NCBI GenBank assembly: GCA_001798855.1
Contig: MGQQ01000170.1
Location: forward strand, 1-37,854
Length of the DNA stretch: 37,854 nt
Reading direction: 5' to 3'
Source of the DNA: Deltaproteobacteria bacterium RBG_16_49_23
Lineage (GTDB): Bacteria > Desulfobacterota > BSN033 > UBA1163
Positions 5,156-37,631 of this stretch are shown piece by piece. Each line of letters opens with the position of its first letter. The stretch's first letter is position 1. Position numbers and translations under genes: made by a program. The notes under the pieces were generated by a model. That model was not told where the DNA came from. It did no database searches and saw nothing but the letters and a program-made list of their open reading frames with translations.

Positions 5156-5265
5156 AACGATGAACGATGCACAATGAACGATGAACTAATGGAAACAAAA
5201 CATGGAGACAAAAAAATAATCCCCCCTTGCCCCCCTTTAGCAAAGAGGGGGATGGGGGGATTTGA
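5156..5265 (+). repeat. Intergenic word repeat plus C/G-rich hairpin between livG and livF
   Basis: About 30 bp reiterate the words ATGAACGATG / CAATGAACG (5156-5186). A C-rich/G-rich hairpin follows (about 5219-5265: CCCCCCTTTAGCAAAGAGGGGG core). Both types recur elsewhere in the window (33.1 and 33.6 kb for the word; 9.3, 11.2, 23.9, 27.7 and 33.2 kb for the hairpin). They split an otherwise tight livG-livF pair. Function unknown. Confidence 0.75.
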
Positions 5266-5288
5266 AAAATATTTTATGAGCCAAAAGA

Positions 5289-6041
5289 ATGGAGAAGATG
5301 CTGGAAGTTAAAAACCTGATGGTCTTTTTTGAGAATGCCCTCGCCCTCAATGATTTCAGTATGGCAGTGGAAAGAGGGGAAATTGTCGGCGTCCTCGGAT
5401 CCAACAGCGCCGGAAAGACCACCTTGATGAATACGATTTCGGGCTTAATCCTTGATATGAAGAAAAAAGAGGAACGGAGAGGCGGGGAGAGGATCAGCGT
5501 CCTCGGAGAATTGAAGTTTGAAGGGGAGGATATCCTGAATAAGAAGCCGAGTGAACGGGTGAAAAAAGGAATTGTCCTCAGCAGGGAGAGGCACCCCATT
5601 TTCCGCGATAGCGATGTTGTGGAAAATCTGAAAATCGCCGGATATCTGCACAAAAGACATGAGGTCAAGGAAAGAATCGACCTTACATTCAAACTCTTTC
5701 CCCATCTGCAAGGAATGAAAAAGAGAAAAGCGGGGTTGATGAGCGGAGGGGAGCAGCAGATGCTCGCCATCGGCATCGCACTGGTCGCCAAGCCCCGGCT
5801 CCTGCTCATGGATGAACCCCTGCTTGGATTGAGTCCCATGCTTCAGGCAGACCTCGTCAGAGCGATTAAGAATATTCGGCTGGCAGGGATCACCGTGCTG
5901 GTGACCGAACAATTTGCGAGAACCCTTCTGCCGATCATCGACCGGGGATATGTGATCGAAAACGGAATGCTTGTCTTTGAAGGTTCGAGACAAGAGCTAT
6001 TTGATAACCCTGAAGTCAAATCAGCCTATCTGGGGATCTAA
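5289..6041 (+). CDS. livF: Liv-type ABC transporter ATPase LivF
   Basis: Second ATPase of the importer, 250 residues. Walker A is GSNSAGKTT (Ser in place of the usual fourth-position Gly, consensus still met), the signature is LMSGGEQQMLAIG and Walker B is RLLLMDEPLLGLSP; the C-terminus has the typical LFDNPEVKSAYLGI ending. A charged stretch (KKKEERRGGERISVLG, about residues 58-73) makes the loop before the second beta-strand some 14 residues longer than in a compact LivF. Translation may begin at 5289 or at the ATG at 5298, which starts the conserved strand MLEVKN. The preceding 137 bp carry repeats, so co-transcription with livG is likely but not proven. Confidence 0.9.
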   Translation: MEKMLEVKNLMVFFENALALNDFSMAVERGEIVGVLGSNSAGKTTLMNTISGLILDMKKKEERRGGERISVLGELKFEGEDILNKKPSERVKKGIVLSRERHPIFRDSDVVENLKIAGYLHKRHEVKERIDLTFKLFPHLQGMKKRKAGLMSGGEQQMLAIGIALVAKPRLLLMDEPLLGLSPMLQADLVRAIKNIRLAGITVLVTEQFARTLLPIIDRGYVIENGMLVFEGSRQELFDNPEVKSAYLGI

Positions 6042-6047
6042 ACTACC

Positions 6048-6074
6048 GGCATAGAGCAAAGCGCATAGGGCATG
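6048..6074 (+). repeat. Word repeat containing the start codon of the next gene
   Basis: GGCATAGAGC, AAAGCGCATAG and GGGCATGG are imperfect reiterations of a GCATAG-type word. The ATG of the following acyl-CoA synthetase (6072) is inside the last copy, and no Shine-Dalgarno sequence is visible. The ten bases GGCATAGAGC recur exactly at 37581-37590 beside the release-factor-like gene. Confidence 0.65.
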
Positions 6075-7739
6075 GCATCCGTGGAACTGCTTAGCGATAC
6101 CATTTATGGATCTTTTGAAGAAGCAGCGGAAAGAAATCCCGGTAAGCCGGCGCTCATCTTTCTTGGGGAGAGTTATTCTTATTCCGAGCTGAAAGAGATG
6201 GTCCTGCACTTTGCCGCTTCCTTACATCGATTAGGGATTGGGGAAGATGACCGTATTATTTTGAATCTTTATAATCTTCCTCAAACGATCATCGCCTGGT
6301 TAGCCCTTCAACGTCTTGGTGTGATTCCTATCCTCGTGGCTCCTGTTTATACGGCTGAGGACCTCAAGTTTCTGGCCAGAGACAGTGGAGCTGAGACGAT
6401 TGTGTGCATGGATACAAACCTCAGGTATGTGGTCGAGATTCTCCCCGAGACCCCGTTAAAAAGAGTCATCGTAACCAATATGATCGATCTTGTTCCCTGG
6501 TGGAAGAGGCTGATCAGCAGAGGATTTGATCGTGTTCCGAAGGGGAAGATTCCTCTGGGAAAAGACTTTTTCTCTTTTATTCATCTCTTAAAGGAAGGCC
6601 GTCCGTCCTCTCTCCCTCCTTTCCAAAAGGGGGAGGAGGGCAGAACAGCCCTCATGCTTTACACGGGTGGCACCACGGGTTTTCCAAAAGGGGTTCCTCT
6701 TTCAGAAACGTATTTTCTCATCAGAGCGCTCGAGTGGAGGAGGGCAAGTGAGGGAGTCACCCCGTTAGGAGAATGTATTACGGCGCTCTCCGCTCCTCTT
6801 TATCATATCATCGGCGAGATGGATGCTCTGTCCCCTTTGATTATCGGCGGAGAGACGATCATCCTGCTGCCCCGGGTGGTTCTGGATGCTTTGTTCGATC
6901 ACATTCAACGATATCATGCCACCAACATGTTTGCCGTCCCCGCCATGTACCGGATGATACTGGAACATGACCGGGTCGATACCTATGATTTCAGTTCGCT
7001 TCGATATTGTGGAACAGGGGGCGATGCCATGCCCGCGGAAGTGGGCAATCGATGGTTGAAAAAATTTAACATCCCTTTATACCAGGGCTATGGAGCCACA
7101 GAACTGTGCGGGGCGATCTCCCTCTCTTATGCCAAAGATGGAATTCCACCGGAGGGTTCGGCAGGAAAGATTGTGCATACAGACCGATTTAAACTGGTGG
7201 ATCCGGAAACCCTTAAGGAGGTCCCGCCCGGTGAGCCGGGAGAATTATTAGGAACTTGTGACCATGCCGTAAAAGCTTACTGGAATAAACCTGAGGAGAC
7301 AACAGAATGTTTTTTAAATATGGATGGGGAGATCTGGTATCGAACAAAAGACATCGTCCGGGTGGATGAGAACCAGTGGCTCTTTTTCATGGACCGCTCC
7401 GTGGATATGATCAAACATAAAGGGTATCGTATCGCCGCGGCTGAAGTGGAAAGAATACTCCAGGCGCATCATGCAGTGCTTGCCGCCTGTGTGGTGGGCA
7501 TTCCGGATGCAGGTGTCGGAGAGCGCGTCAAGGCCTTTGTGGTTCTCAAAACAGATGTCAGAGGGGTCAGTAGTTACGAACTCATGAAGTGGTGCCGGGA
7601 TCGGTTGGCTCCCTACAAGGTTCCTACCTACATTGAATTCCGGGATATGTTGCCCAAATCGAAGGTGGGGAAAATGTTGAGGCGTGAAATGAGGGAAGGG
7701 GAACGAAGAAAACTTTGGGAGGAGGGGGAAAAAGAATGA
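6072..7739 (+). CDS. AMP-forming acyl-CoA synthetase (ligase)
   Basis: Activates a carboxylic acid with ATP and CoA, probably the acid imported by the preceding transporter. The 555-residue product has all ANL-family motifs: P-loop YTGGTTGFPKG (197-207), YQGYGATELCG, the A7-A8 region WYRTKDIVRVDENQWLFFMDRS followed by KGYRIAAAEVE, and the C-terminal PKSKVGKMLRRE with the catalytic lysine. Residues about 177-191 (RPSSLPPFQKGEEGR) look like translated intergenic repeat placed just before the P-loop. The start ATG lies in a word repeat without a ribosome site, but MASVELLSDTIYGSFEEAA is a normal family N-terminus. The stop overlaps the next start (ATGA). Exact substrate unknown; aryl, branched or medium-chain acids are all possible. 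Confidence 0.9.
   Translation: MASVELLSDTIYGSFEEAAERNPGKPALIFLGESYSYSELKEMVLHFAASLHRLGIGEDDRIILNLYNLPQTIIAWLALQRLGVIPILVAPVYTAEDLKFLARDSGAETIVCMDTNLRYVVEILPETPLKRVIVTNMIDLVPWWKRLISRGFDRVPKGKIPLGKDFFSFIHLLKEGRPSSLPPFQKGEEGRTALMLYTGGTTGFPKGVPLSETYFLIRALEWRRASEGVTPLGECITALSAPLYHIIGEMDALSPLIIGGETIILLPRVVLDALFDHIQRYHATNMFAVPAMYRMILEHDRVDTYDFSSLRYCGTGGDAMPAEVGNRWLKKFNIPLYQGYGATELCGAISLSYAKDGIPPEGSAGKIVHTDRFKLVDPETLKEVPPGEPGELLGTCDHAVKAYWNKPEETTECFLNMDGEIWYRTKDIVRVDENQWLFFMDRSVDMIKHKGYRIAAAEVERILQAHHAVLAACVVGIPDAGVGERVKAFVVLKTDVRGVSSYELMKWCRDRLAPYKVPTYIEFRDMLPKSKVGKMLRREMREGERRKLWEEGEKE
6600..6646 (+). repeat. Intragenic copy of the C/G-rich hairpin repeat
   Basis: Inside the acyl-CoA synthetase gene, CTCCCTCCTTTCC is followed at once by AAAAGGGGGAGGAG, the same layout as the intergenic hairpins (for example 11192-11232, where CTCCCTTTGGCAAAGGGAGG is seen). 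It is read through in frame as SLPPFQKGEEG, between the linker and the P-loop. Confidence 0.6.
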
Positions 7740-9271
7740 CAGTGCAAAGCTTTACCATCTACGATCTTTTTAAGAGGAACGGAAAAATTTATAGAAACCG
7801 GACGGCCATCCAGACAGAGAGTCAGCGGATCACTTTCGGAGAGCTCTTTGATCAGGTCAATATCCTGGCTGGATCGTTAAATCACAAAGGGATTAAAAAG
7901 GGGGACCGCATTGCCGTGCTGGCGAAGAATTACCCTCAATATTTAACCCTGATGGGCGGCATTGCCGCTCTTGGGGCAATCATGGTGCCTATTAATTTTC
8001 GTTTGTCCGCTGACGAGGTTGGCCATAATCTTACTAACACAGAACCCGTCATGATATTTGTAGACCCTGATTTTGAAAAGACCATTGCAGATCTACGGCC
8101 TATCTGCCCTTCGGTGAGAGATTGTGTGACGTTTGGTCCGGGAGGAGAGAAGTTCGAGCCCTTCGATTCACTCTTAAGCGGTCAGCCGGCTAAAGCCATC
8201 GACCTGAGCGGGGATGACCCTTACATCATCATGCATACGGCCGCCGTCCAGGGAAAACCCCGCGGCGCCATCATCAGTCATCATAATCTGATCGCCTGTT
8301 CCATTCAGACCATCGGAGTGATGAATTTAACCCATCTGGATATCTACCTGAACATCCTTCCCATTTTTCATATCGCAGGAATGATTGCCGCCCTGACCAC
8401 AATGCATGCGGGAGGGAAAAATCTGATCATTTCAAAATTTGATCCCAAAATTGCATTAAAGACGATACAGGAAGAAGGGGTGACCCTGATCGGTGACTTC
8501 CCGCCTATTTTATTCCAGTTACTCGATGAGGAGGCGAAAGGGGAATCCAGTATCTCTTCTTTAAAAAATGTTCTGGGCGTTGAGTTACCGGAGACCGTTA
8601 AGAGATTTGAAGGTCTTGGGCATGGCCAATTTTGGTTGGCCTATGGACAGACAGAGACGATGGGCCTGACTTCGATCTGTTTAAACCGGGAAAGACCGGG
8701 GTGCGCCGGGAAACCCGGTCCTTTGGTGAACATCAAGATCGTAGACGAGTTTGACAAAGAAGTCGAAACAGGGAAAGTGGGTGAGATCCTCATTCGAAGC
8801 CCGATGGTATTTCATGGATACTGGAGGGAAGAAGAACTGACCCAACATACGTTTCGCGATGGCTGGCACCATACCGGCGATTCAGGTCGACTGGACGAAG
8901 ACGGCTTTCTCTGGTTTGCAGGCAGAAAGGCTGAAAAGGAGCTGATCAAACCCGGCGGCGAAAATGTCTATCCCATCGAAGTGGAGAAAGTGATTCTCGA
9001 GCATCCCTGCATCCATGAGGTCTCGGTCATCGGGGTTCCCGATCCGAAATTCGGGGAAGGAATTAAGGCGGTCTGCGTCATGAAACCGAAAGCCAGATTA
9101 ACGGAACAGGAGCTGATTGATTTTGTAGCGGGGAAGATTGCCCGCTATAAAAAACCAGGCTATGTTCAATACGTCGATGCTCTCCCAAAAAAGGGGGATG
9201 GTTCCATCGACCGGCCAAAGGTGAAGGAGTTATACGGGAAGGGACGAGAGACGTTTGACGAAAGACGATAG
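7736..9271 (+). CDS. Acyl-CoA synthetase-like protein, degenerate active site
   Basis: ANL-superfamily protein, 511 residues from the ATG at 7736, which overlaps the upstream stop (ATGA); an in-frame ATG at 7715 is less likely. Fold motifs are present: YGQTETMG, WHHTGDSGRLDEDGFLWFAGR and PGGENVYPIEVE. However, the P-loop reads TAAVQGKPRG (168-177) instead of TSGTTGxPKG, and the C-terminal motif reads GSIDRP, with Ser490 where the adenylation lysine (G-K-I-x-R) should be. P-loop variants of the HTAA type occur in a subfamily of these proteins, from memory. It may be an altered or regulatory ligase, or act only in the thioester half-reaction. The last ten residues (KGRETFDERR) are encoded by a word repeat, so the natural C-terminus may have been replaced. 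Confidence 0.85.
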   Translation: MTVQSFTIYDLFKRNGKIYRNRTAIQTESQRITFGELFDQVNILAGSLNHKGIKKGDRIAVLAKNYPQYLTLMGGIAALGAIMVPINFRLSADEVGHNLTNTEPVMIFVDPDFEKTIADLRPICPSVRDCVTFGPGGEKFEPFDSLLSGQPAKAIDLSGDDPYIIMHTAAVQGKPRGAIISHHNLIACSIQTIGVMNLTHLDIYLNILPIFHIAGMIAALTTMHAGGKNLIISKFDPKIALKTIQEEGVTLIGDFPPILFQLLDEEAKGESSISSLKNVLGVELPETVKRFEGLGHGQFWLAYGQTETMGLTSICLNRERPGCAGKPGPLVNIKIVDEFDKEVETGKVGEILIRSPMVFHGYWREEELTQHTFRDGWHHTGDSGRLDEDGFLWFAGRKAEKELIKPGGENVYPIEVEKVILEHPCIHEVSVIGVPDPKFGEGIKAVCVMKPKARLTEQELIDFVAGKIARYKKPGYVQYVDALPKKGDGSIDRPKVKELYGKGRETFDERR

Positions 9272-9440
9272 ACGAAGGATGAGGGACGAGAGACTAATAT
9301 TCTGAAAATAGTAAAGACATCGATTTGTAAAATCCCTCCTACCCTCCCTTTTCCTAAGGGAGGAATTACCCCTCTTTGGTAAATGGTTCGACGAGACTCA
9401 CCATCCTGAGCTTGTCGAAGGAGAGGGGCGAGGGGAGATT
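9243..9440 (+). repeat. Composite repeat: word repeat, two hairpins and a nested TTCGAC element
   Basis: 9243-9294 reiterates GACGA(A/G)AGACG words and includes the end of the preceding gene. A hairpin with CTCCCTTTTCCTAAGGGAGG follows (about 9346-9366). Then comes CCCCTCTTTGGTAAATGG, interrupted by TTCGACGAG...CTTGTCGAA (about 9388-9420) before the closing GGAGAGGGG. It therefore appears that one repeat class is inserted in another. No gene is seen in this 223-bp gap. Confidence 0.7.
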
Positions 9441-10653: not shown

Positions 10654-11091
10654 ATGGAGTTTAAGAATTTTTCTCTTTTCATCAACCAGACAAAGGTGAA
10701 CCGGTTTGCGGATGATCTGGCAGGGGGAAAGATCATGTCCACCCTCTGCAAGAAGTGCGGAAAGCAGTACTATCCTCCGGCGGCAGATTGTTCTTCCTGC
10801 ATGGGAAGCGAGATGGAATGGAAGGAGCTTAAGGCCGAGGGGAAACTGCTCACCTTTACTAAGATTCATGTCCCCCCGGAGCATTTTGCCGTCCGTCAGC
10901 CCCTGATGCCATTTTCGAGCATTCAATTTGAACCTTGTCCGATTGGCATCATTGAAGTGGGGAAAGAATTGCCCATCATGGGCTGGATACCCAAAATGGA
11001 TATCAAGAAGATCAAAGTAGGGATGAAGATGAAGGCCTCGCCCTTTGCTCTTCCCGACGGAAAGATCACAATTGTCTTGGAGCCGGTTTAA
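10654..11091 (+). CDS. Zn-ribbon OB-fold protein (DUF35), thiolase partner
   Basis: 145-residue small acyl-CoA-associated protein. A four-cysteine zinc ribbon (C32, C35, C46, C49 in LCKKCGKQYYPPAADCSSC) is followed by an OB-fold region from about residue 55, with the family pattern of a -GKLLTFTKI- strand and an FALPDGKITIVLEPV end. The ATG at 10654 follows AGGAGGGA and sits one base after the thiolase stop, which argues for an obligate complex with it. A longer in-frame ATG at 10600 lies within the thiolase gene and is unlikely. It is the last gene of the + strand operon; the next 516 bp hold repeats only. Confidence 0.9.
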   Translation: MEFKNFSLFINQTKVNRFADDLAGGKIMSTLCKKCGKQYYPPAADCSSCMGSEMEWKELKAEGKLLTFTKIHVPPEHFAVRQPLMPFSSIQFEPCPIGIIEVGKELPIMGWIPKMDIKKIKVGMKMKASPFALPDGKITIVLEPV

Positions 11092-11097
11092 AAAAAG

Positions 11098-11266
11098 TTC
11101 GTAACACTTTAGTTTTTTGAAAAAGAAGTCTAATCAAGATATCGAAATATCCCAAATCCCCCTCAATCCCCCTTTTTCAAAGGGGGAAGTATTTCTCCTC
11201 CCTTTGGCAAAGGGAGGTGGGGAGGGATTTTATGAAGCCTTTTTCAAAGCGTTATAGTGTTACAAA
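11098..11266 (+). mobile_element. MITE-like repeat with TAACACTTTAG ends (copy 1)
   Basis: Ends are imperfect inverted repeats of 29 bp (left 11097-11125, right 11238-11266; 22 of 29 positions match when paired) sharing GTAACACT and TTTGAAAAAG. The interior holds two C/G-rich hairpins (about 11155-11188 and 11192-11232). A related element lies at 33107-33260 with a matching left end and an identical about 40-bp inner hairpin. There is no transposase, so it would be non-autonomous. Confidence 0.65.
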
Positions 11267-11403
11267 AGTTCGGAGTTCGGAGCATAAACTTTTTAAGACA
11301 GCCATCCCTTCCTTCTAATACAAACGCAAAAAGATCCTTTTCATTCTAATTTCCACTTATCCCCTCTCTCTCCCCAGTGAGACTGTGTCGCAATTAGCCA
11401 TTT

Positions 11404-13987: not shown

Positions 13988-14082
13988 TTTATCTTAACGG
14001 TGATTACCTCCACCTTCATCCTCCCCCGCAAGGGGGGGAGGACATATTTTTTTCTATCTGCCATCTGCTATCTGCAATCTCT

Positions 14083-14580: not shown

Positions 14581-14625
14581 CTATTTTCCCCCTTTCTTGA
14601 GATTTTTAAAAAAAGTTCAGAAATC

Positions 14626-14718
14626 ACTGATTACATAGATTATGAAACGATTACACAGATATGAAATGGATTGGAAATAGAAAAAATCTGCTTAATCCTT
14701 TTTTTAATCTGTGTAATC
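14626..14718. repeat. Word-repeat hairpin (GATTACACAGAT)
   Basis: The left arm reiterates GATTACA(T/C)AGAT words (14629-14660). The right arm carries the complement: GATTACACAGAT (14649-14660) pairs exactly with ATCTGTGTAATC (14707-14718), and AATCC/AAGCAGA-type words lie between. The same 12-mer ATCTGTGTAATC occurs before mtnA at 26540-26551. It lies within the second Liv operon; function unknown. Confidence 0.75.
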
Positions 14719-14756
14719 AAGAGAGCATAGAGCAGTTTTTTAGAGCTCTCTTCCCT

Positions 14757-16005: not shown

Positions 16006-16081
16006 CCGTAAAGGGGTAGGGGTGAGGGGTAAGGGGTAAAACCTTTTTACGACTTACGCCTGACGCCTCACGGTTTACGGG
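16006..16081. repeat. Word-repeat hairpin (GGGGTAAGG / CGACTTACG type)
   Basis: The left arm reiterates GGGGTAA and GGGGTGA words and is bounded by CCGTAAA (16006-16012), which pairs with TTTACGG (16074-16080); the inner GTAAAA (16036-16041) pairs with TTTTAC (16045-16050). The right arm repeats CGACTTACGCC/TGACGCCTCACGG. A similar element lies at 34575-34640. Next to it, 16118-16168 holds another C/G-rich hairpin enclosing CCTGCCTGCGGTAGGCAGG. Confidence 0.75.
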
Positions 16082-17215: not shown

Positions 17216-17246
17216 GTTAAACCCCAAAGAAATAAATTAGAAATAG

Positions 17247-17378
17247 TGGAAGAATGGAATATTGGAATAATGGGTTTCTAAGAAATAAATTATCTATCAC
17301 AACATTCAATTCTTTGCTCTTTCCATAATAGCAGTTTTTTTTCACATTATTCCATCATTCCAGCATTCCATTATTCCG
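17247..17378. repeat. Word-repeat hairpin (GGAATA / TATTCC)
   Basis: The left arm (17247-17273) reiterates GGAATATT and GGAATAATGG; the right arm (17346-17378) reiterates ATTCCATC, ATTCCAGC and ATTCCATTATTCC, complementary to the left. About 70 bp of A/T-rich sequence forms the loop. The same word is reiterated without a partner arm at 21119-21156, before tRNA-Arg. Confidence 0.75.
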
Positions 17379-17381
17379 GGA

Positions 17382-18266
17382 CTATACTCTTTCTATTCTC
17401 TTCAACCCGAAAAGTCCATAGGGTTTTACCAGCAAAATAATGAGAAGCAGGGCATAGGCTGCAACATCTTTGAGACCGCCCCCAACAAGTGGATCGAGAT
17501 AACCTGCGATTAAATTTTCGAGCACACCGAGGATGAGTCCTGCGAAAAGGGCGCCTGGAAGTGAATCCAATCCTCCGAAGAGGGCAACGATCAATCCTTT
17601 GATGCCGATATAGGGGAGTGGAAAATGGATATCCATCACATAGGCTGTTCCCATACCAGCTACCGAGGCGACAATGGCAGAGATGATCCAGATAAGAGAG
17701 AAGATTGTCCTGACATTGATCCCCGTGCTCTGGGAGAGCTGATGGTCCTCAGCTGTGGCTCGCATCCCCAGACCTGTTTTTGTGAATTGAAAGAAGAGGG
17801 CCAAAGAGAGAAAAACTAACAGGACCACACCAAAACTGATCAACTGCACAACCCGGATGGGCACCCCTGATATTTCAAACTCACCGAGTGATAAAAGAGT
17901 GGCATAGGTTTTTGATTCACCCTTGAGGATGAGTTGAAAGACTCCATCCAGAGCCATGAAGACGGCGAAGGTCATCAGGAATGCAGAAATCAATGGTTGC
18001 CCGATGAGGGGGCGAAGGGTTATCCGTTCAACAAGCCAACCCATCAGAATTGAACAAACCAATGCCATCAGGATGCTCAGAGGAAGGGGCAGCTTTAAGG
18101 CGACGAGGCCGATCCAGAAGAAAAGCCCACCAAAAGCCAGGAGTTGGCCATGGGCTAAGCTGACCACACGGGTCGATTTATAGACCAGGACGATCGCGGC
18201 AGCCACCAGGGCATAGAGGCTACCTACCATCAATCCCGGAATGGCAAGCTGAAGAAATTCCTTCAC
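17382..18266 (-). CDS. livH: Branched-chain-type ABC transporter permease LivH (second set)
   Basis: 294-residue permease with about eight membrane segments. LivH features are LVAAAIVLVYKSTRVVSLAHGQLLAFGG near the N-terminus, TKTGLGMRATAEDHQLSQSTGI in a cytoplasmic loop, and the ATPase-contact segment LIVALFGGLDSLPGALFAGLILG. Its ATG overlaps the stop of the upstream acyl-CoA synthetase (ATGA), so the two are translationally coupled. This coupling is direct evidence that the ligase works with the transporter. Confidence 0.93.
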   Translation of the reverse strand: MKEFLQLAIPGLMVGSLYALVAAAIVLVYKSTRVVSLAHGQLLAFGGLFFWIGLVALKLPLPLSILMALVCSILMGWLVERITLRPLIGQPLISAFLMTFAVFMALDGVFQLILKGESKTYATLLSLGEFEISGVPIRVVQLISFGVVLLVFLSLALFFQFTKTGLGMRATAEDHQLSQSTGINVRTIFSLIWIISAIVASVAGMGTAYVMDIHFPLPYIGIKGLIVALFGGLDSLPGALFAGLILGVLENLIAGYLDPLVGGGLKDVAAYALLLIILLVKPYGLFGLKRIERV

Positions 18267-21058: not shown

Positions 21059-21166
21059 TTTTAAACCAGAAACCGGAACCATGGAATGGTGGGTTTTAAA
21101 CATATTTAATTCAATGAGCCAATATTCCAGCATTCCAAAATTCCATTATTCCCTGGATGTTTGTTG

Positions 21167-23173: not shown

Positions 23174-23204
23174 TTGTGATGTTGAGTGGTAATACTTTGA
23201 AAAG

Positions 23205-23998: not shown

Positions 23999-24106
23999 AC
24001 TCCTATAGATTGCAACCATAGATTCGTTAGTGGCGACCATTCAATTATGAGACTGTTAATAGGTTTGAGGTTTAGAGGTCTGATTCCAGAATTTGACTCC
24101 GAACTC

Positions 24107-24970
24107 CTAACTCCGAACTATATCCTCAATCGCCCAGCCAATTCGATGGAAAAAGAGACCCATGGAGTGGGTCCGAAGGGCTTTCCGTATCGCCTTCAAG
24201 ATTTCCTGGTCTCCCCCTGCATAGGCCAGAAGAAAACGCCAGCGATCCGTTCTTGTAATCGACAGGCCGGAGGGTTTCCACTTTTCAACGGATCGATTGA
24301 GACGGAGAAGGTTTTTCGTCCTATCCCTGACGGAGAGAGCTTCTTTACGGAAGGACCGGTCAAAGTCGATGAGAAGAACCCGGTCTTCATCCGCAAGGAT
24401 ATTTTTAAGCTGGAGGTCGTTGTGGTAAAAACCTGCCTGATGAAATTGTCTAAGGAGAGCCCCCGAAGAGCGTATCGTTTTTCGCTTATGGAGGAGGTTT
24501 TCACGGGAAAGGTGAGGACCCTTTTCTTGAAAATACTGGATCAGGTTTTTAGCGTGAGGGATCTCTAATGAGAGGAAATAAGCCCGATAGATGAAATAAT
24601 AAACAGTTTGATGGATCGCTCCAATGGGTTGGATCGTCGGAATTCCGCAGGACCGGATCTCCTCTGTTATGGTCAGCTCCCGGAAGGATCTTGACCCAAT
24701 GAGGTAGAGGTTTCCTGTAAGAGCCCGTAAAAGTCCGCCATGTGAATATTGTCGAAGGACCATTCTTTTTCCATCTTCAAGTGGGATGGAAGGGTGGAGA
24801 GTTCTGCCTTCATGATAGTAAGTTTCATGAAGAGATCTCTTAAGAAATGTCTTTACTTCTTCGATTCCCTGCTGAAGAAGGCTCTCTTTATAATCGTTAT
24901 GGAGAAGAAGATAGGTTTTTCCTCTTTGGATCAAAGAGTAAGAAACCGGGATGGGTATTTTCTTAAACAT
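24107..24970 (-). CDS. Lipopolysaccharide (Kdo) kinase-like protein, KdkA/WaaP family
   Basis: 287-residue protein-kinase-fold enzyme expected to phosphorylate Kdo or heptose of the LPS inner core at the cytoplasmic face of the inner membrane. Seen: KRMVLRQYSHGGLLRALTGNLYLIGSRSFREL (about 68-99, typical of KdkA), catalytic loop HNDLQLKN (183-190) and metal-binding IDFDRS (201-206, replacing DFG). No membrane segment. It diverges from gatB with back-to-back -35 boxes in the 99-bp gap. The C-terminus ends within a word repeat (24058-24123). Confidence 0.85.
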   Translation of the reverse strand: MFKKIPIPVSYSLIQRGKTYLLLHNDYKESLLQQGIEEVKTFLKRSLHETYYHEGRTLHPSIPLEDGKRMVLRQYSHGGLLRALTGNLYLIGSRSFRELTITEEIRSCGIPTIQPIGAIHQTVYYFIYRAYFLSLEIPHAKNLIQYFQEKGPHLSRENLLHKRKTIRSSGALLRQFHQAGFYHNDLQLKNILADEDRVLLIDFDRSFRKEALSVRDRTKNLLRLNRSVEKWKPSGLSITRTDRWRFLLAYAGGDQEILKAIRKALRTHSMGLFFHRIGWAIEDIVRS

Positions 24971-25069: not shown

Positions 25070-26515
25070 ATGCCTGTGGATTATGAACCTGTTATCGGAC
25101 TGGAAGTCCATGCCCAGCTTTTGACCCGATCAAAAATTTTCTGCGGATGTTCAACCGCTTTCGGCGAGGGGCCCAACACCCAGACCTGTCCTGTCTGCAC
25201 AGGCCAGCCCGGCTCTCTTCCTGTCATCAACCGGAAGGCTGTCGAATTTGCCATCAGGTTAGGCTTGGCTACAAGCTGCCGAATTGCACCCTATAGCGTA
25301 TTCGCCCGGAAGAACTATTTCTATCCCGATCTCCCAAAAGGTTATCAGATTTCAATGTATGAACATCCTCTGGCAGAACATGGTTTCATTGAAATCACCG
25401 TTCAGGGAGAAAAGAAACGGATAGGTCTCATCCGGATCCATATGGAAGAAGATGCCGGGAAGCTGAAACATGGCGAGACACCTGAAACAGCCCACTTCAG
25501 TTATGTCGATTTCAACCGGACCGGCGTCCCTCTCGTCGAGATTGTGAGCGGACCGGATATCCGCTCCCCTCTGGAGGCAGGGGAGTATTTGAGAAGGCTT
25601 CGCGCCATCCTTCAATATCTGGAGGTCTGCACGGGAGATATGGAGAAGGGGACTTTCCGGTGCGATGCCAATGTCTCGATCCGGCCCAAAGGAGAGACCA
25701 AACTTGGAACGAGGACCGAATTGAAAAATATGAACTCTTTTCGCTATGTGGAGAAGGCATTGGAATATGAGATCAAGCGTCAGATCGAAGTTTTAAAAGA
25801 CGGAGAAGAGGTCGTTCAGGAGACGAGGCTCTGGGATACGAATCAGGGCGTCACCCTGTCGATGAGAGGAAAGGAGGAGGCTCACGACTACCGATATTTT
25901 CCCGATCCGGACCTTGTTCCCTTAAGGATTGATGGAAAATGGATCGAAGAGATACGTCAGAGCCTTCCCGAGTTACCCGACCAGAAGAAGGAGAGGTTTG
26001 TAAAGGATTATAAGATCCCCGAATATGATGCCGAGATTCTAACCTCCGCAAAGGCCATGGCCAACTATTTTGAGGATTGCGTCCATCTCTTTCCTGAACC
26101 CAAAGCAGTGAGCAACTGGATGATGGGAGACCTCCTCAGAGAGTTAAAACATGACGAAAGGGAGATAGAACAGTGTCCTGTCACTCCTAAACATCTCGCG
26201 GAAATGCTGACCATGGTGAAGGAGGGGACGATCAGCGGGAAGATTGCAAAGGATGTTTTTGAAGAGATGTATCGAACCGGCGCTCCGCCTGCCGGGATCG
26301 TTAAGGAGAAGGGGTGGATCCAGATCCTTGATACCGGTGAGATCGAAAGGGTGATCGAAAAAGTGCTTCAATCCAATCCAAAACTAGTGGAGGATTACCG
26401 GAATGGAAAGGAAAAGGTCTTTGGCTTCCTCGTGGGGGAAGCGATGAAGGGAACAAAAGGGAAAGCCAACCCGAAGATAGTGAACGAACTACTCCGCAAG
26501 AAACTCAAAGGCTGA
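25070..26515 (+). CDS. gatB: Asp-tRNA(Asn)/Glu-tRNA(Gln) amidotransferase subunit B
   Basis: Kinase/tRNA-binding subunit of GatCAB, which converts misacylated Glu-tRNA(Gln) or Asp-tRNA(Asn) to the amidated form. 481 residues, the normal length. N-terminus [23 protein letters not shown] with zinc cysteines C25, C27, C40 and C43; [10 protein letters not shown]; cradle-domain motif [18 protein letters not shown]; and the C-terminal GatB/YqeY domain ending [21 protein letters not shown] precedes the ATG. gatA and gatC are not adjacent in this window. Confidence 0.97.
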
Positions 26516-26516
26516 G

Positions 26517-26579
26517 GTTAAGGTTTAGGTTGAGCCAAAATCTGTGTAATCGGCCTTTGGTAATCGGTGTAATCACATC
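26517..26579 (+). repeat. Word repeats directly before the mtnA start
   Basis: GTTAAGGTTTAGGTT is followed by ATCTGTGTAATCGG, GGTAATCGG and TGTAATCAC, which end at the mtnA ATG. ATCTGTGTAATC (26540-26551) is identical to one arm of the hairpin at 14626-14718. No SD is visible before mtnA. Confidence 0.65.
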
Positions 26580-27650
26580 ATGAAATTCAAAACCATCGAG
26601 TGGAAAGGCGACGCTATCAGGATCCTTGACCAGAGGAGGCTCCCTGGCGTGATCCGCTATCTTGACTGCAAGGACGCTTCCTCAATGGCTAAGGCCATCC
26701 GGAACATGGCCATCCGTGGCGCCCCCGCAATCGGCGTGGCAGCAGCCATGGGGATTGCCCTTGCTGCGAAGAAAGCTCGTGACAGTAAGCCACAGGCGTT
26801 CCTCACGGCCATTGAGAAGGTCTGCCATGAGATGAGCCAGACAAGACCCACGGCCGTCAACCTCTTCTGGGCTGTCGATCGGATGAGAAGGATTTTAGCG
26901 CAAGTTGGCGCTTACGGGGTTGAACAAACCAGAGTGCGATTGGTGGAGGAAGCTTTACTCATTTACAAGGAGGATATGGAGGTCAATCGAAAAATAGGGA
27001 AACATGGAAAGAGGCTCATTAAGAATGGAGACGGAATACTCACTCATTGCAATGCAGGGGCATTGGCCACCGCCGGATATGGAACAGCGCTTGGCGTGAT
27101 GTATGCGGCGCGTGACGGAGGGAAACGATTCCATGTCTTTGTAGATGAGACAAGGCCTATGCTCCAGGGCTGCAGATTGACGGCCTGGGAATTGGTTCAG
27201 GAGAAGATTCCGGCGACAGTGATTACCGATAATATGGCAGGAGTTTTGATGTCCCAGAAGAAGATCAATCTGGTTATTGTTGGAGCGGACCGGATTGCCC
27301 GCAATGGAGATACAGCCAATAAGATCGGAACCTATAGTCTCGCCGTACTCGCAAAATGGCACAACATACCGTTTTATGTGGCCGCACCCACCTCCACGCT
27401 TGATCTCTCCCTCGCCTCCGGGCAGGACATACCCATCGAGCAACGGGATGTCAGGGAAGTGACCCACTTCCGGGGATGCTCTATCGCTCCGGAGGGGGTT
27501 CAAGGGTTTAATCCCGCCTTTGATGTAACACTTCACTCCCTGATTGAGGGCATCATTACAGAGAAGGGAATTATTCGGGAGCCTTTTGAAAAGAATTTGA
27601 AAAAGATATTCAAAAAAGAAAAGAGGCTCATCGTGGGGGCGGGTGGGTAG
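26580..27650 (+). CDS. mtnA: S-methyl-5-thioribose-1-phosphate isomerase
   Basis: Converts methylthioribose-1-phosphate to methylthioribulose-1-phosphate in methionine salvage. 356 residues, the usual size, with RGAPAIGVAAA (46-56), catalytic Cys157 in THCNAGALATAGYGTALGV and the catalytic Asp237 in GADRIARNGDTANKIGTY. The start MKFKTIEWKG matches the family N-terminus, so ATG 26580 is accepted although the upstream bases are a word repeat and lack a ribosome site. Other salvage genes are not seen nearby, but a SAM hydrolase follows, keeping the SAM/methionine theme. Confidence 0.96.
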   Translation: MKFKTIEWKGDAIRILDQRRLPGVIRYLDCKDASSMAKAIRNMAIRGAPAIGVAAAMGIALAAKKARDSKPQAFLTAIEKVCHEMSQTRPTAVNLFWAVDRMRRILAQVGAYGVEQTRVRLVEEALLIYKEDMEVNRKIGKHGKRLIKNGDGILTHCNAGALATAGYGTALGVMYAARDGGKRFHVFVDETRPMLQGCRLTAWELVQEKIPATVITDNMAGVLMSQKKINLVIVGADRIARNGDTANKIGTYSLAVLAKWHNIPFYVAAPTSTLDLSLASGQDIPIEQRDVREVTHFRGCSIAPEGVQGFNPAFDVTLHSLIEGIITEKGIIREPFEKNLKKIFKKEKRLIVGAGG

Positions 27651-27682: not shown

Positions 27683-27955
27683 TATCCCCCTTTGGTCTCC
27701 GACCCAGAGCGGTTTCTGACCCGGAGGGCAAAGGGGGATGGAGGGGGATTTTAAGAACAAATGCTTCCTTTGAGAATATTGGCGGAGTGATGGAAGGTAT
27801 ATGGAGTTGTTTATGATTTATAAAATCTCCCCCCTGCCTTCGCCGAAGCGGCTTCGCGCAGGCAGGTCACCCCTCTTTGCCTGTCTAAGGACAGGAAAAG
27901 GATTACCAAAGAGGGGGAAAAGCACAGAGCTTTGCTAGGGGGGGGTAATTCGGTC
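27683..27955. repeat. Two composite C/G-rich hairpins with nested palindromes
   Basis: 27685-27750: CCCCCTTTGG...GCAAAGGGGG is split by an about 36-bp insert (TCTCCGACCCAGAGCGG...CCCGGAG) that recurs nearly identically at about 33166-33201. 27825-27950: the hairpin CCTGCCTTCGCC...GCAGGCAGG is followed by CCCCTCTTTGCC...CCAAAGAGGGG, whose loop encloses CCTGTCTAAGGACAGG. No gene is seen in this 313-bp gap. Confidence 0.7.
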
Positions 27956-27963: not shown

Positions 27964-28752
27964 ATGAAAACCCCCATTATTACTCTGCTTACCGATTTTG
28001 GAACAAAGGACCATTATGTTGCTTCCATGAAGGGAGTGATATTGAGGATCAACTCCCGATGTGCGCTGATTGATATCAGCCATGGAGTGAGTCCGCAGGA
28101 TATCCGGGAAGGGGCGTTTCTTTTAACCGGCGCCTGTTCCTATTTTCCTAAAGGAACAATCCATATTGCGGTGGTCGATCCTGGAGTAGGGAGTCCAAGG
28201 AAGCCCATTCTTATTGAAACAAAAAACTATTTCTTCATCGGGCCTGATAACGGCCTCCTCACATTAGCGGCAAGAAAGGATGGAATCAGGCAGACCGTTG
28301 TTCTCACGAATAAGAAGTATTTTCTTTCTGAAGTGAGCGCCACTTTTCATGGCAGGGATATCTTTGCTCCTGTGGCAGGACATCTCTCCCTGGGTGTCAC
28401 CCCCGCATCCTTTGGAAAAAGGACAGAACATTGGGTGGAACTCGACCGAGGCAAGCCCAAAATAAAAGGTGACACATTGATCGGGGAGGTCATTCATATT
28501 GACGGTTTCGGAAACCTTATCAGTAATATTGAAAAGGAAGGATTTTCCAAATTCATTAAAGACCGGCCATTTCTGATCAGGGCAGGGAAGAAGACGATAC
28601 AGGATTTAAAAAGAGGGTATTACGAAGGTAAGAAGAACGACCCGATAGCTCTCTTCGGAAGCGGGGGATTTTTGGAAATTTCGGTGAGGGAAGGAAACGC
28701 CCAAAAAGTTTTGAAAGTGAAGAGGGGAGATCCAATTACAGCAATTATTTAG
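27964..28752 (+). CDS. S-adenosylmethionine hydrolase (adenosine-forming; DUF62 / SAM hydroxide adenosyltransferase)
   Basis: 262-residue member of the DUF62/fluorinase-like family, which hydrolyses SAM to adenosine and methionine. Motifs: TLLTDFGTKDHYVASMKG at the N-terminus, VDPGVGSPRKP carrying Asp72 and Arg79, PDNGLLT and FHGRDIFAP with His129; the Asp-Arg-His set, with seven residues between Asp and Arg, is the one used to activate water in characterised hydrolases. So hydrolase rather than halogenase activity is expected. It stands alone between repeats, with a weak ribosome site (GGGAA). Confidence 0.9.
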   Translation: MKTPIITLLTDFGTKDHYVASMKGVILRINSRCALIDISHGVSPQDIREGAFLLTGACSYFPKGTIHIAVVDPGVGSPRKPILIETKNYFFIGPDNGLLTLAARKDGIRQTVVLTNKKYFLSEVSATFHGRDIFAPVAGHLSLGVTPASFGKRTEHWVELDRGKPKIKGDTLIGEVIHIDGFGNLISNIEKEGFSKFIKDRPFLIRAGKKTIQDLKRGYYEGKKNDPIALFGSGGFLEISVREGNAQKVLKVKRGDPITAII

Positions 28753-28818
28753 CTAATAGCCGATGGCCAATACCGAATAGCAAAACCATAGGCTATATGC
28801 CATAAGCCATTAGCCATC
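28752..28818. repeat. Word-repeat hairpin (AATAGCC / GGCTAT)
   Basis: The left half reiterates AATAGCC, GATGGCC, AATACC and AATAGC; the right half reiterates GGCTATATGCC, ATAAGCC and ATTAGCC, giving complementary pairs. It fills the whole gap between the SAM hydrolase and the aminotransferase and touches the hydrolase stop. Confidence 0.7.
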
Positions 28819-33106: not shown

Positions 33107-33260
33107 TTTTTTGTAACACTTTAGCTCTTTGAAAAACGTTATCTAATCCCCCTTCATCCCCCTTTGGTCTCCGACCCAGAGCGGTCTCTGACCCGGAGGG
33201 CAAAAGGGGGAAATGTTTCTCCTCCCTTTGGCAAAGGGAGGTGGGGAGGGATTTTTAAAA
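33107..33260. mobile_element. MITE-like repeat with TAACACTTTAG end (copy 2)
   Basis: The left end TTTGTAACACTTTAG...CTTTGAAAAA (33110-33136) matches both ends of the element at 11098-11266. The interior holds one hairpin with the nested CTCCGACCCAGAG insert (about 33150-33208) and a second identical to copy 1 over about 40 bp (33216-33256). No matching right end is seen. A small ATGAACGATAA word precedes it (33087-33100). Confidence 0.65.
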
Positions 33261-33286
33261 GTTTATTTCAAACATCTAAATTATTA

Positions 33287-33595
33287 CTATCTTTTCTTTA
33301 ATTTGACCTCAACCGCTCTTTTCTTCCCCTCCATGGTCCCTTTCTTATCCCGGCGGTCGTCAAGCCTGATAGTGGTCAGAACTCGCTTGGCCCCTTTTTT
33401 GAAAGGAGCCTCATGCATCTTCATGACGACCCGCATCAGGTTCCTCAAGTCGCCTTCAAGATTCGATCCCATGGAGGTGAGCTCGTATTTGATCTTCTTC
33501 TCATTCTGTAAAATCCTCACACATTCCGCCACATAAAGGCTGAGGCTTGTTCCTGTTGTTCCAATAGGAACGACACTGATGTCAAGAATGGCCAT
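33287..33595 (-). CDS. MTH1187/UPF0045 family thiamine-binding-like protein
   Basis: 102-residue small alpha/beta protein. The start MAILDISVVPIGTTGTSLSLYVAECVRIL and the middle YELTSMGSNLEGDLRNLMRVVMKMHEAPF are typical of the MTH1187/YkoF-type family, members of which bind thiamine or related ligands. The ATG at 33595 follows TGGAGG; an in-frame start at 33610 would include that site. It stands alone between repeats. Function in this organism unknown. Confidence 0.88.
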   Translation of the reverse strand: MAILDISVVPIGTTGTSLSLYVAECVRILQNEKKIKYELTSMGSNLEGDLRNLMRVVMKMHEAPFKKGAKRVLTTIRLDDRRDKKGTMEGKKRAVEVKLKKR

Positions 33596-33629: not shown

Positions 33630-33705
33630 ACAATGAACGATGGACAACGAACAATGAACAAAAACGGAATAAACTGTACCATGTTCATCGTTTAACGTTC
33701 ATTGT
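33630..33705. repeat. Word-repeat hairpin (ATGAACGATG / CATCGTTCAT)
   Basis: The left arm reiterates CAATGAACGATGGACAACG words; ACAATGAACG (33630-33639) pairs exactly with CGTTCATTGT (33696-33705), and ATGAACA (33654-33660) with TGTTCAT (33682-33688). It is the clearest hairpin of the word class and uses the word also found at 5156-5186. Confidence 0.8.
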
Positions 33706-33802
33706 TTCTATAATTACCATCGAGTTTCCCCATTGTCAACGGATTTAAAGGAAAAGTCTTCCCTTTTTCTCCGGATTGTTGTATATATTTATTTATTAAC
33801 CC

Positions 33803-34531: not shown

Positions 34532-34534
34532 CCT

Positions 34535-34640
34535 GTAATCAAAAATCCAAAATCCGAATATCGAAATCTTCATCCGTAAGGAGTAAGGCGTTAGGGGTAA
34601 GGGGAAAAACTCCTTACGACTTGCGTCTCACGCTTTCACA
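34535..34640. repeat. Word repeats and hairpin between ccdA and lptG
   Basis: 34537-34567 reiterates AATCAAAAATCC/AAAATCCGAA. In 34575-34640, CGTAAGGAGT (34575-34584) pairs exactly with ACTCCTTACG (34609-34618), around reiterated GTAAGG/GGGGTAAGGGG words and followed by CGACTTGCGTCTCACGC. The second part matches the element at 16006-16081. Confidence 0.7.
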
Positions 34641-37097: not shown

Positions 37098-37105
37098 AAT
37101 ACATC

Positions 37106-37138
37106 AAGGGGTTGCAAAGGTTGCAACCCCTTTTTTTT
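37106..37138 (+). terminator. Rho-independent terminator after tRNA-fMet
   Basis: AAGGGGTTGCAA and TTGCAACCCCTT form a perfect 12-bp stem with loop AGG, followed by a run of T. It begins 9 bp after the tRNA. Confidence 0.92.
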
Positions 37139-37192
37139 CAGTGGAAAGGGAGGTTTTTCGTTTTTTCCTCCCGTGGATATCCAATACGTGCG

Positions 37193-37585
37193 TCATTCCC
37201 ATCGGTCAAGATCCCTCTCGACTGTTTTTCTTAATCGTTTCTTACCGGAAAGAAATTTCTTCTTTTCTTTTTTCCTTTCGATGGCTTTCTTAGGGACAGA
37301 GGTGGGGATCCGGCGCCTTTTGGGCCGGTTTAACTCGATCAGCCTTTTCTGAAGTCTTTCAAGGGCCAGCCTAAGATTTTGCGATTGATACCGATGTTCC
37401 GTTGCGGTTATCGTGATACCGGAGCGGAGATGTTTGAGACGGACTGCGGTCTCGGTTTTGTTCTTCCTCTGGCCGCCCGGTCCACTCGAACGGAAGGTCT
37501 CAACGATCACCTGCTTCTTGAGGATTTCAGGATCGGTATCGAATTTCACAGTCTCCAACACCTCGTGGCATGGAGCAAAGGGCAT
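37193..37585 (-). CDS. Release-factor-like protein with GGQ motif (class I RF domain / ArfB-like)
   Basis: 130-residue protein with the peptidyl-tRNA hydrolysis motif in SSGPGGQRKNKTETAVRLKHLRSGI (GGQ about 37-39) and a basic C-terminal tail (KRRRIPTSVPKKAIERKKEKKKFLSGKKRLRK) like that of stand-alone ribosome-rescue factors. There is no codon-recognition domain, so it is not RF1 or RF2. It may rescue stalled ribosomes; its class is distinct from typical ArfB. The first residues (MPFAPCH) come from a word repeat, and the true start may be an internal TTG or GTG before ETVKFD. Confidence 0.8.
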   Translation of the reverse strand: MPFAPCHEVLETVKFDTDPEILKKQVIVETFRSSGPGGQRKNKTETAVRLKHLRSGITITATEHRYQSQNLRLALERLQKRLIELNRPKRRRIPTSVPKKAIERKKEKKKFLSGKKRLRKTVERDLDRWE

Positions 37586-37631
37586 AGAGCAGAGAGTCGA
37601 ATTCTTTTACCCTTTGCGCTACGCCCTATGC
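37575..37631. repeat. Word-repeat hairpin (GCAAAGGGCATAG)
   Basis: GCAAAGGG (37575-37582) pairs with CCCTTTGC (37610-37617), and GCATAG words pair with CTATGC (37626-37631). It overlaps both the start of the release-factor-like gene and the phoU stop codon. GGCATAGAGC here is identical to that at 6048. Confidence 0.7.

What the first reader, a model, noticed from the sequence alone, without database searches (positions are those of the whole stretch)
5156..37631. A family of 'word-reiteration' hairpins fills the intergenic spaces
At least 14 sites (about 5156, 6048, 9243, 14053, 14626, 16006, 17247, 21119, 24058, 26517, 28752, 33630, 34535, 37575) show the same architecture: a 6-10 bp word repeated imperfectly three to five times, often followed by its complement to make a ragged hairpin. 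The word differs from site to site but the design does not. They are not simple microsatellites (copies vary and spacing drifts) nor standard REP elements (no common sequence). Ideas: slippage plus template-switch products, a non-coding RNA fold, or a selfish element that copies local words. This is the strongest candidate for something undescribed.
Basis: seen in the sequence. Interest (0 to 1): 0.75.

Follow-up and report, generated by a model that had tools for sequence, protein, structure and literature searches.

The report
Word-array hairpins from four-helix-bundle selfish elements
The odd intergenic hairpins built from a repeated 6-9 letter word are real, and most appear to be gene-less copies of small selfish elements in which a four-helix-bundle protein gene sits between two inverted arrays of a word that goes with that protein; this offers an explanation for heptamer repeats long noted in bacterial genomes.

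Summary
In detail: 13 of the 14 sites carry 6-9 bp tandem words far beyond dinucleotide shuffles; the 14th (14626) is a different, hairpin-ended insertion element. Across 430 kb of this genome, intergenic DNA peaks at lag 7 (z 20.8), with 31 period-7 and 31 period-8 arrays against none in shuffles.

Local slippage or copying of local words does not explain them. Inverted word arrays bracket genes of one protein family, PF05635/TIGR02436 (four-helix bundle, 'S23p', the protein of 23S rRNA intervening sequences). In 101 of 121 such loci the two flanks match as inverted words above the 95th percentile of control genes. Non-orthologous genes at >=70% protein identity share the word in 29 of 31 pairs; below 40%, in 86 of 6242. 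Nine of 14 window sites use a word of a four-helix-bundle locus. One Nostoc plasmid site exists as gene-bearing, gene-less hairpin, and empty alleles.

Best reading: window hairpins are mostly gene-less derivatives of IVS-like selfish elements, each word cognate to its protein. How they move is unknown. Words in orthologous gaps differ between species.

The parts
5156..5186 (.). array, period 7, word GAACGAT/GAACAAT; no clear second arm
   Evidence: 0/300 shuffles; word matched in four-helix-bundle locus L294 (0/40)
6048..6073 (.). array, period 7, word GCATAGN
   Evidence: 1/300; L328 (1/40)
9243..9294 (.). array, period 7, word GACGANR; starts inside the end of ORF 7715-9271
   Evidence: 0/300; L248 (0/40)
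14054..14080 (.). array, period 7, word ATCTGCN
   Evidence: 0/300; no cognate locus found (27/40)
14599..14750 (.). different element: GATTACACAGAT words inside hairpin ends GAGATTT..AAATC and GAGAGC..GCTCTC
   Evidence: a relative copy elsewhere shows a precise insertion with 7-bp duplication AATTTGA; not significant by period 6-9 score (101/300); 40/40
16011..16039 (.). left arm, period 7, GTAAGGGN
   Evidence: fold z -3.81; no match beyond control (14/40)
16047..16080 (.). right arm, period 7, complement of the left word
   Evidence: 33/40
17242..17273 (.). left arm, period 8, TGGAANNN
   Evidence: cognate four-helix-bundle locus L307 (0/40)
17345..17377 (.). right arm, period 8, NNNTTCCA
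   Evidence: fold z -4.35; 0/40
21119..21152 (.). array, period 8, TTCCANNN, before tRNA-Arg
   Evidence: L057 (0/40)
24061..24083 (.). left arm, period 7, GAGGTTT, weak
   Evidence: not matched (29/40); fold of the whole site z -0.62
24096..24119 (.). right arm, period 7, ACTCCGA
   Evidence: L246 (2/40)
26508..26531 (.). array, period 6, AGGTTA; overlaps the last bases of gatB
   Evidence: 0/300; L247 (1/40); word varies in orthologous gaps
28752..28779 (.). left arm, period 7, GCCAATA-like
   Evidence: 29/40; the orthologous gap holds ATCAGTN words in L059 and L060
28786..28817 (.). right arm, period 7, TAGCCAT-like
   Evidence: fold z -2.42; 34/40
   Evidence: L250 (0/40)
33630..33661 (.). 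left arm, period 7, GAACAAT/GAACGAT
   Evidence: 2/300; z -4.01; L294 (0/40)
33685..33706 (.). right arm, complement of the left word
   Evidence: 18/40
34537..34570 (.). remnant of a TCCGAAA element, period 7
   Evidence: L192 (0/40); fuller copies at this site in relatives
34575..34604 (.). nested left arm, period 7, GTAAGGN; right arm about 34610-34635
   Evidence: z -2.91; 36/40
37575..37632 (.). both arms, period 7, GCAAAGG/GCATAGN and complement
   Evidence: 1/300; z -3.05; 11/40 (closest L316)

Best explanation
The hairpins are mostly gene-less (MITE-like) members of a family of small selfish elements. The complete element is a four-helix-bundle gene (PF05635/TIGR02436, S23p, relative of the retroelement protein Avd) between two inverted arrays, most often 4-5 copies of a 6-9 base word with a fixed core and free linker bases. 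Each protein clade has its own word. SHOWN: arrays around these genes in several phyla; word-protein pairing; empty, gene-bearing and gene-less alleles at one plasmid site; the genes lie in the sense direction between co-directional neighbours; different words in orthologous gaps of related species. INFERRED: the elements are carried in the transcripts of their neighbours; the protein reads its own word array, probably as RNA or other single strand (its solved relatives have five chains, one described as a ring); gene-less hairpins with the same word are spread or kept in trans. UNKNOWN: the strand-transfer step; a reverse transcriptase of family PF00078 was not found in 9 of 17 family genomes (drafts).
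For: Flank match around four-helix-bundle genes: 44 of 49, 19 of 29 and 38 of 43 loci above score 13, which is the 95th percentile both of the 242 control genes and of the 263 (one search had no controls of its own); shuffled partners 22 of 400 and 13 of 300. Arrays on both sides: 39 of 49 against 24 of 242; 17 of 29 against 4 of 263; 27 of 43. Plasmid loci of cyanobacteria and Riemerella: 10 of 12 examined above 13. Word sharing between non-orthologous loci: 29 of 31 pairs at >=70% protein identity, 13 of 20 at 60-70%, 11 of 56 at 50-60%, 17 of 385 at 40-50%, 86 of 6242 below 40%; label permutation on the first 77 loci 0 of 1000. Window words found in four-helix-bundle flanks: 9 of 14 sites at <=2 of 40 unit-permuted controls (20 array segments tried at these 14 sites). 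Allele series on Nostoc plasmids: with gene L332, L333; gene-less hairpin of the same GGGAAC word in L344 (flanks 96% identical to L332); empty L345, L346, L347, L354. Sense orientation: 103 of 111 such genes with both neighbours called have both on their strand, against 62 of 115 other small genes. G-rich arm 5': 63 against 7 (25 mixed) around the genes, 19 against 2 (2 mixed) in own-genome non-coding pairs. Fold: 2GSC and 2RLD by sequence and structure; Avd 4DWL and retroelement complexes 8UB7/8UBB by structure only, at Foldseek E 0.2-0.6 but probability 0.99-1.00. In print: the Coxiella intervening sequence has tandem heptamers before its S23p gene and is cut by RNase III at the start of the first repeat (PMC4990558 passages).
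Against: Five of 14 window sites found no cognate word beyond controls. The window itself has no four-helix-bundle gene. Presence of such a gene against presence of arrays in one 10-21 kb locus per genome was not associated (7 of 26 against 4 of 24, Fisher p 0.50); only a weak rank correlation of counts with array density (rho 0.36, p 0.01). 20 of 121 loci did not pass the flank test, 10 of them among the 29 distant ones; of five own-genome loci in the set three passed (L057, L048, L241) and two did not (L239, L235). Wobble test gives no RNA-stem signal. No target duplication was seen at the two cyanobacterial sites with empty alleles. For Coxiella the authors conclude that S23p is probably not made in vivo, that its gene is decaying, and that the RNA matters more (PMC4990558 passages). 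Word-protein pairing could be co-inheritance on one element rather than recognition. The mode of 4-5 copies is partly shaped by the score threshold. The small-gene control for orientation rests on a simple ORF caller and may hold false genes.
Confidence: 0.82

Rival explanations
1. Mutational products: replication slippage at 6-9 bp steps plus template switching makes arrays and their inverted copies on the spot; no element is involved.
For: Arrays gain and lose units (L332 against L333); arrays with period 14 and 16 are also common (18 each at threshold 11), in part only as multiples of 7 and 8; the literature suggests slippage for heptamers (PMC4692102 passages).
Against: The same words recur in dozens of places; words go with protein clades; arrays bracket one gene family; filled and empty alleles exist.
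Confidence: 0.06
2. Regulatory binding sites: arrays bind global regulators or RNA-binding proteins that control neighbouring genes.
For: Fixed core, free linker, fixed period and paired arms; proposed for Geobacter (IHF/HU, PMC2700814 passages) and Beggiatoa (PMC4679880 abstract and passages).
Against: Genomes differ in word and presence at the same gap (94 pairs of genomes with different words, 40 with the same), which does not look like a conserved regulon; no link to gene function was tested here.
Confidence: 0.12
3. Processing or termination hairpins: transcribed stems cut by RNase III or acting as terminators, kept for the host's benefit.
For: Six of seven folded sites have z <= -2.4; 103 of 111 four-helix-bundle genes lie sense between co-directional neighbours; RNase III cuts the Coxiella element.
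Against: No excess of G-U over A-C mismatches; gaps with arrays are convergent in 10 of 58, all gaps in 30 of 242; presence and word differ between species.
Confidence: 0.15
4. Transposase-mobilised MITEs whose ends happen to be tandem words, with the four-helix-bundle gene as a passenger.
For: A neighbouring class (site 14626) is such an insertion with a 7-bp duplication.
Against: No one terminal sequence; words change with the four-helix-bundle clade; no duplication seen at the word-array empty sites.
Confidence: 0.12

Closest known systems
23S rRNA intervening sequences (IVS) with S23p gene, e.g. Coxiella (PMC4990558, passages read)
   Same: S23p gene; stem with inverted repeats; tandem heptamers next to the gene; unit number varies between strains; called selfish
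   Different: There in helix 45 of 23S rRNA and excised from it, the protein probably not made; here between protein genes, with many words and many gene-less copies
Cyanobacterial heptanucleotide repeats (the name STRR for them is recalled; STRR was seen only as a fingerprinting term in PMC5088731 passages) and the Nostoc trnL P6b stem with TDNGATT or NNTGAGT heptads (PMC4476775 passages)
   Same: Degenerate 7-base words, paired arms, word class switching at one site; S23p genes on Nostoc, Calothrix and other cyanobacterial plasmids carry such arms
   Different: Published as repeats or intron stems, without a link to S23p genes in the passages seen; P6b lies in a group I intron
Geobacter metallireducens 'global regulator binding sites' classes 1-4 (PMC2700814 passages)
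   Same: Classes 1-3: 3-5 tandem hepta- or octanucleotides in opposite-strand pairs at variable distance, several words in one genome
   Different: Proposed there as IHF/HU sites; no S23p link in the passages seen; class 4 is a pentanucleotide; that genome was not re-examined here
TAACTGA repeats of Beggiatoaceae (PMC4679880, abstract and passages) and GGGAATC repeats of Xanthomonas (PMC4692102, passages)
   Same: Intergenic heptamer arrays; the first paper even suggests that a repeat-binding protein could be the mobile element; the solved S23p relative 2GSC is from Xanthomonas campestris
   Different: Beggiatoa: direct repeats of one word but for one inverted case; the terms 'four helix' and 'S23' have no occurrence in either main text
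Avd protein of diversity-generating retroelements (4DWL, 8UB7)
   Same: Fold of the protein; Avd-like chains stand in a ribonucleoprotein with the reverse transcriptase (entry titles)
   Different: About 9% sequence identity; reverse transcriptases or template/variable repeats next to these genes were not sought; PF00078 not found in 9 of 17 family genomes

Membership tests
S23p / 23S_rRNA_IVP four-helix-bundle protein family (for the gene inside complete elements) | Match to PF05635 / TIGR02436 above curated cut-off | tested here: met
   28 of 30 genomes searched (this one and 29 relatives) have a match over the PF05635 cut-off; own-genome protein L057 hits TIGR02436 at 71.3 bits, cut-off 24
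S23p / 23S_rRNA_IVP four-helix-bundle protein family (for the gene inside complete elements) | Four-helix fold like 2GSC | tested here: met
   model of the L057 protein, pLDDT 92.2; best PDB match 2gsc_B, TM 0.80 by query length
23S rRNA intervening sequence (IVS) | Located inside a 23S rRNA gene (helix 25 or 45) | tested here: not met
   window sites lie in gaps or over ORF ends and Rfam finds no rRNA in the window; 111 of 120 four-helix-bundle genes have ORFs of 90 aa or more called on both sides; rRNA was not searched for in those loci
23S rRNA intervening sequence (IVS) | Inverted ends around an S23p gene | tested here: met
   101 of 121 loci above the control 95th percentile (L222 and L270 are one place counted twice); not for the window copies, which have arms but no gene
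23S rRNA intervening sequence (IVS) | Excised from RNA by RNase III | not testable with these tools
   needs RNA data; reported for Coxiella
Cyanobacterial heptanucleotide repeats | Tandem degenerate heptamers in intergenic DNA | tested here: met
   periods 6, 8 and 9 also occur
REP / RAYT system (features recalled) | One conserved short palindrome family with a Y1 transposase | tested here: inconclusive
   no common sequence among the sites by eye; a RAYT search was not made
Diversity-generating retroelement | Reverse transcriptase with template and variable repeat | tested here: not met
   PF00078 found in 8 of 17 family genomes only, although all 17 have PF05635 matches (drafts 86-98% complete); template and variable repeats not sought
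Classical MITE | One fixed terminal inverted repeat | tested here: not met
   words differ between protein clades
Classical MITE | Target duplication | tested here: inconclusive
   none seen by eye at two cyanobacterial sites; a 7-bp duplication only for the separate class of site 14626

The most novel reading that the evidence does not exclude
A word code: each four-helix-bundle protein forms a five-membered ring that reads its own element's array one word per subunit (core read, linker free), as RNA or single-stranded DNA, and so recognises and spreads both its own element and gene-less hairpins in trans without a classical transposase. Many heptamer repeats of bacteria, cyanobacterial ones included, would then be footprints of such protein-word pairs.
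Probability: 0.3. Interest if true: 0.93.

Novelty: new variant of a known kind. Interest (0 to 1): 0.8.

Why it matters
Heptamer repeats have been noted in cyanobacteria, Xanthomonas, Beggiatoa and Geobacter and given separate explanations or none. A link to one small protein family makes the question testable at the bench: does a given protein bind its own word? It also suggests that S23p, a protein with 'no known function' (PMC4990558 passage), belongs to a widespread selfish element, and that a good part of the non-coding DNA of some genomes descends from it.

Tried and rejected
Rfam at gathering scores gave only two tRNAs. Local slippage alone: rejected because words recur and pair with protein clades. 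RNA-stem selection by wobble pairs: 108 G-U against 87 A-C mismatches in 62 elements, p 0.15, so not supported. Yes/no association of PF05635 with arrays across 50 genomes: not significant, perhaps because one 10-21 kb locus per genome is a poor sample of arrays. Reverse transcriptase as the partner: not found in 9 of 17 family genomes, so not pursued. Phage records hold no match to the L057 protein at E 0.001. Site 14626 was split off as a different element. Matching window words to cognate loci failed at 14053, 14626, 16006, 28752 and 37575 under the permutation control, although by eye L328/L316 resemble 37575 and L218 resembles 16006; with 20 segments tried at the 14 sites one or two chance passes are expected at this cut. 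Tandem-array detection favours arrays of 4 or more degenerate units, so the copy-number mode of 4-5 is weak evidence for a ring. The control set comes from array-rich genomes (24 of 242 control genes have arrays on both sides), which makes that test conservative.

Rows dropped before counts: loci with a domain shorter than 200 bp or a flank under 150 bp, and repeated proteins (60 hits to 49 loci; 31 to 29; 47 to 43). L222 and L270 are the same place, counted in both and once in the 120 loci, where 6786 pairs (117 loci with a readable word) were scored. Orthologous gaps: L059 and a G009 contig appear to be the same record and were counted once; there, pairs with intermediate word similarity were left out of both counts. 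Of 15 plasmid records with a match 12 were examined; at the Calothrix site L351 carries another gene and was counted neither as filled nor as empty. The match lists were cut by the tool, so the 8 own-genome PF05635 matches are known by count, six by place.

Full report
What was checked. The window is contig C170 of a 3.83 Mb draft genome in 171 contigs. Its nearest named relatives by the GatB protein are metagenome-assembled genomes labelled Deltaproteobacteria and Syntrophaceae (85, 80 and 78% identity). I took 20 more stretches of the same genome, giving 430 kb with the window, of which about 15% is intergenic by a simple longest-ORF rule.

Intergenic DNA of this genome repeats itself at a distance of 7 bases far more than dinucleotide-shuffled DNA (lag 7 z 20.8 against 20 shuffles; lags 2-9, 12 and 14 are raised too; coding DNA shows mainly its period of 3). 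Arrays with period 6, 7 and 8 number 15, 31 and 31 in 63.5 kb of gaps, against 0.2, 0 and 0 in shuffles. At 13 of the 14 listed sites the best array is reached by at most 3 of 300 shuffles of that gap; 14626 is the exception. A unit has a fixed core and two or three free bases, for example TGGAANNN, TCCGNNN, CAATNNN, GTAAGGN (by eye). Of 116 arrays in the 430 kb, 23 inverted pairs lie within 150 bp and only 3 direct pairs. In those 23 pairs the G-rich arm comes first in 19, the C-rich arm in 2, and 2 are mixed.

Words recur and switch. One 501-bp query with the TGGAANNN pair has 57 BLAST matches in the own genome, the window included and arms counted apart. In relatives the same gap often holds another word. 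Between two permease genes (17227-17382) the window and G015, a genome of another genus, have TGGAANNN, while G002, G003, G007 and G009 of the window's own genus have TCCGAAA arms. The gap at 28752 holds GCCAATA-like words here and ATCAGTN words in L059 and L060. Over 27 gaps, 94 pairs of genomes with arrays have different words and 40 pairs the same.

The link to a gene. In G002 and G009 the TCCGAAA arms enclose a gene of the four-helix-bundle family, found with a profile that I built from the own-genome protein of L057. That protein matches TIGR02436, 'four helix bundle protein', and its Pfam counterpart is PF05635, the 23S rRNA intervening sequence protein. PF05635 has matches in 29 of 30 genomes searched (this one, with 8, and 29 relatives) and in 0 of 14 control genomes. 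I compared the left flank of each such gene with the reverse complement of its right flank. In the first sample, mostly of the window's relatives, 44 of 49 loci exceed the 95th percentile of 242 control genes; in distant bacteria 19 of 29 (263 control genes); in a second sample of relatives 38 of 43 by the same cut. Partners drawn at random from other loci exceed it in 22 of 400 and 13 of 300. Words differ from locus to locus, for example GATCAGT, TTAGCAG, GGGTTCAA, GCATAGC or AGGTTA. Of 12 plasmid loci examined (Nostoc, Calothrix, Leptolyngbya, Pseudanabaena, Stanieria, Geminocystis, Riemerella) 10 pass the same cut; one Calothrix and one Nostoc locus do not (two pairs of related records among the 12).

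Protein and word go together. Among the loci (120, of which 117 have a readable word), pairs in unrelated surroundings share the word in 29 of 31 cases at 70% protein identity or more, 13 of 20 at 60-70%, 11 of 56 at 50-60%, 17 of 385 at 40-50%, and 86 of 6242 below that. On the first 77 loci no label permutation of 1000 reached the observed value. Related proteins can have related words: L234 and L057, 55% identical, use TGGAGTA and TGGAATA. This shows that gene and arms travel as a unit; it does not by itself prove that the protein reads the word. Of 52 pairs in matching surroundings only 26 share the word, which was not looked into.

Gene-less hairpins belong to the same elements. For 9 of the 14 window sites an array finds a four-helix-bundle flank with the same word better than at least 38 of 40 arrays with permuted units (20 segments tried at these sites); an unlisted array at 31789 also does. 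14053, 14626, 16006, 28752 and 37575 do not. The clearest case is outside this genome. At one site of Nostoc plasmids the gene-bearing element stands in two records (L332, L333), a gene-less hairpin of the same GGGAAC word in a third whose flanks are 96% identical to those of L332 (L344), and nothing in four others (L345, L346, L347, L354), while L352 has a hairpin of another word. At a Calothrix site two records are filled (L340, L343), four empty (L348, L349, L350, L353), and L351 has another gene; the break is at the arms and no duplication of the target is seen.

How it may work. Of 111 four-helix-bundle genes with both neighbours called, 103 point the same way as both, against 62 of 115 other small genes (the ORF caller may add false small genes). 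So complete elements sit sense between co-directional genes, probably within transcripts, as intervening sequences do in rRNA. The predicted structure (pLDDT 92.2) matches 2GSC and 2RLD, each with five chains, and after them, with weak E-values (0.2-0.6) but high probability, Avd (4DWL) and the DGR reverse transcriptase complexes. A paper on Coxiella describes 2GSC's protein as a homopentamer forming a toroid, says that S23p proteins have no known function, and reports three tandem heptamers upstream of the S23p gene, varying in number between strains, with RNase III cutting at the start of the first; it also concludes that S23p is probably not made in that species and that the RNA is the more relevant part (PMC4990558, passages). 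Another paper notes that PF05635 resembles Avd (PMC10053308, passages). Arrays most often have 4 or 5 units. I therefore favour a model in which the ring reads the array, one word per subunit, on RNA or single-stranded DNA. This last step is inference, and a wobble-pair test that could have supported an RNA stem did not. The strand-transfer step is unknown; PF00078 reverse transcriptases were not found in 9 of 17 family genomes, among them G002 with 17 PF05635 matches.

What is known and what is new. Heptamer arrays, paired arms and even class switching are in print: Nostoc trnL P6b (PMC4476775, passages), Geobacter 'global regulator binding sites' (PMC2700814, passages), Beggiatoa TAACTGA (PMC4679880, abstract and passages) and Xanthomonas/Nostoc G-rich heptamers (PMC4692102, passages), which that paper generally did not find associated with mobile elements. 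The intervening sequence with S23p is also known. I found no paper that ties dispersed word-array hairpins to S23p genes or pairs words with protein clades, in searches of a library that lacks most subscription journals; of the papers named I saw abstracts or passages, none whole.

Limits. Genes were called by a simple ORF rule; genomes are drafts; controls for searches are genes of the same loci or genomes; the yes/no association across 50 genomes was not significant; the window has arms but no such gene.

Noticed in passing
window 33107-33287; by eye also parts of 27700-27760 and 11090-11290: A C/G-rich element of about 180 bp (ATCCCCCTTC...GGTCTCCGACCCAGAG...) present in the window but absent at the same place in G003 and G007, with scores of further matches in the family's genomes (list cut).
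   Followed up: partly
window 22985-23187: A roughly 211-bp insertion with inverted ends (TTGCTAAGCCAGGCACGGC...GCCGTGCCTGGCTTAGCAA), absent at the same place in G003, G006 and G007.
   Followed up: no
window 14599-14750; L174 3004-3152; L169 17211-17384: GATTACACAGAT element with hairpins at both ends; precise insertion with 7-bp duplication AATTTGA in G002 (empty in G006 and G009) and in G007 (empty in G006); in G015 the hairpin ends stand without the GATTACA words.
   Followed up: partly
L242 1106-1706 (own genome C69); gap 26515-26580 of G012 in L185: An open frame that looks like a GIY-YIG nuclease by eye interrupts a four-helix-bundle gene inside GGGAGAT arms; a similar frame fills an orthologous gap in G012. 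Name is by eye, no family search made.
   Followed up: no
L338 (Pseudanabaena plasmid): A four-helix-bundle gene with very long AAAAGCT/AAAAGCC arrays, which run in the same direction next to the gene, lies between cas6 and cas4.
   Followed up: no
four-helix-bundle loci in matching surroundings: Of 52 such pairs only 26 share the word, as if one element were replaced by another at the same site.
   Followed up: no
window 5218-5265 and other gaps: C-rich hairpins (AATCCCCCCTTGCCCCCC...GGGGGGATTT) distinct from the word arrays.
   Followed up: no
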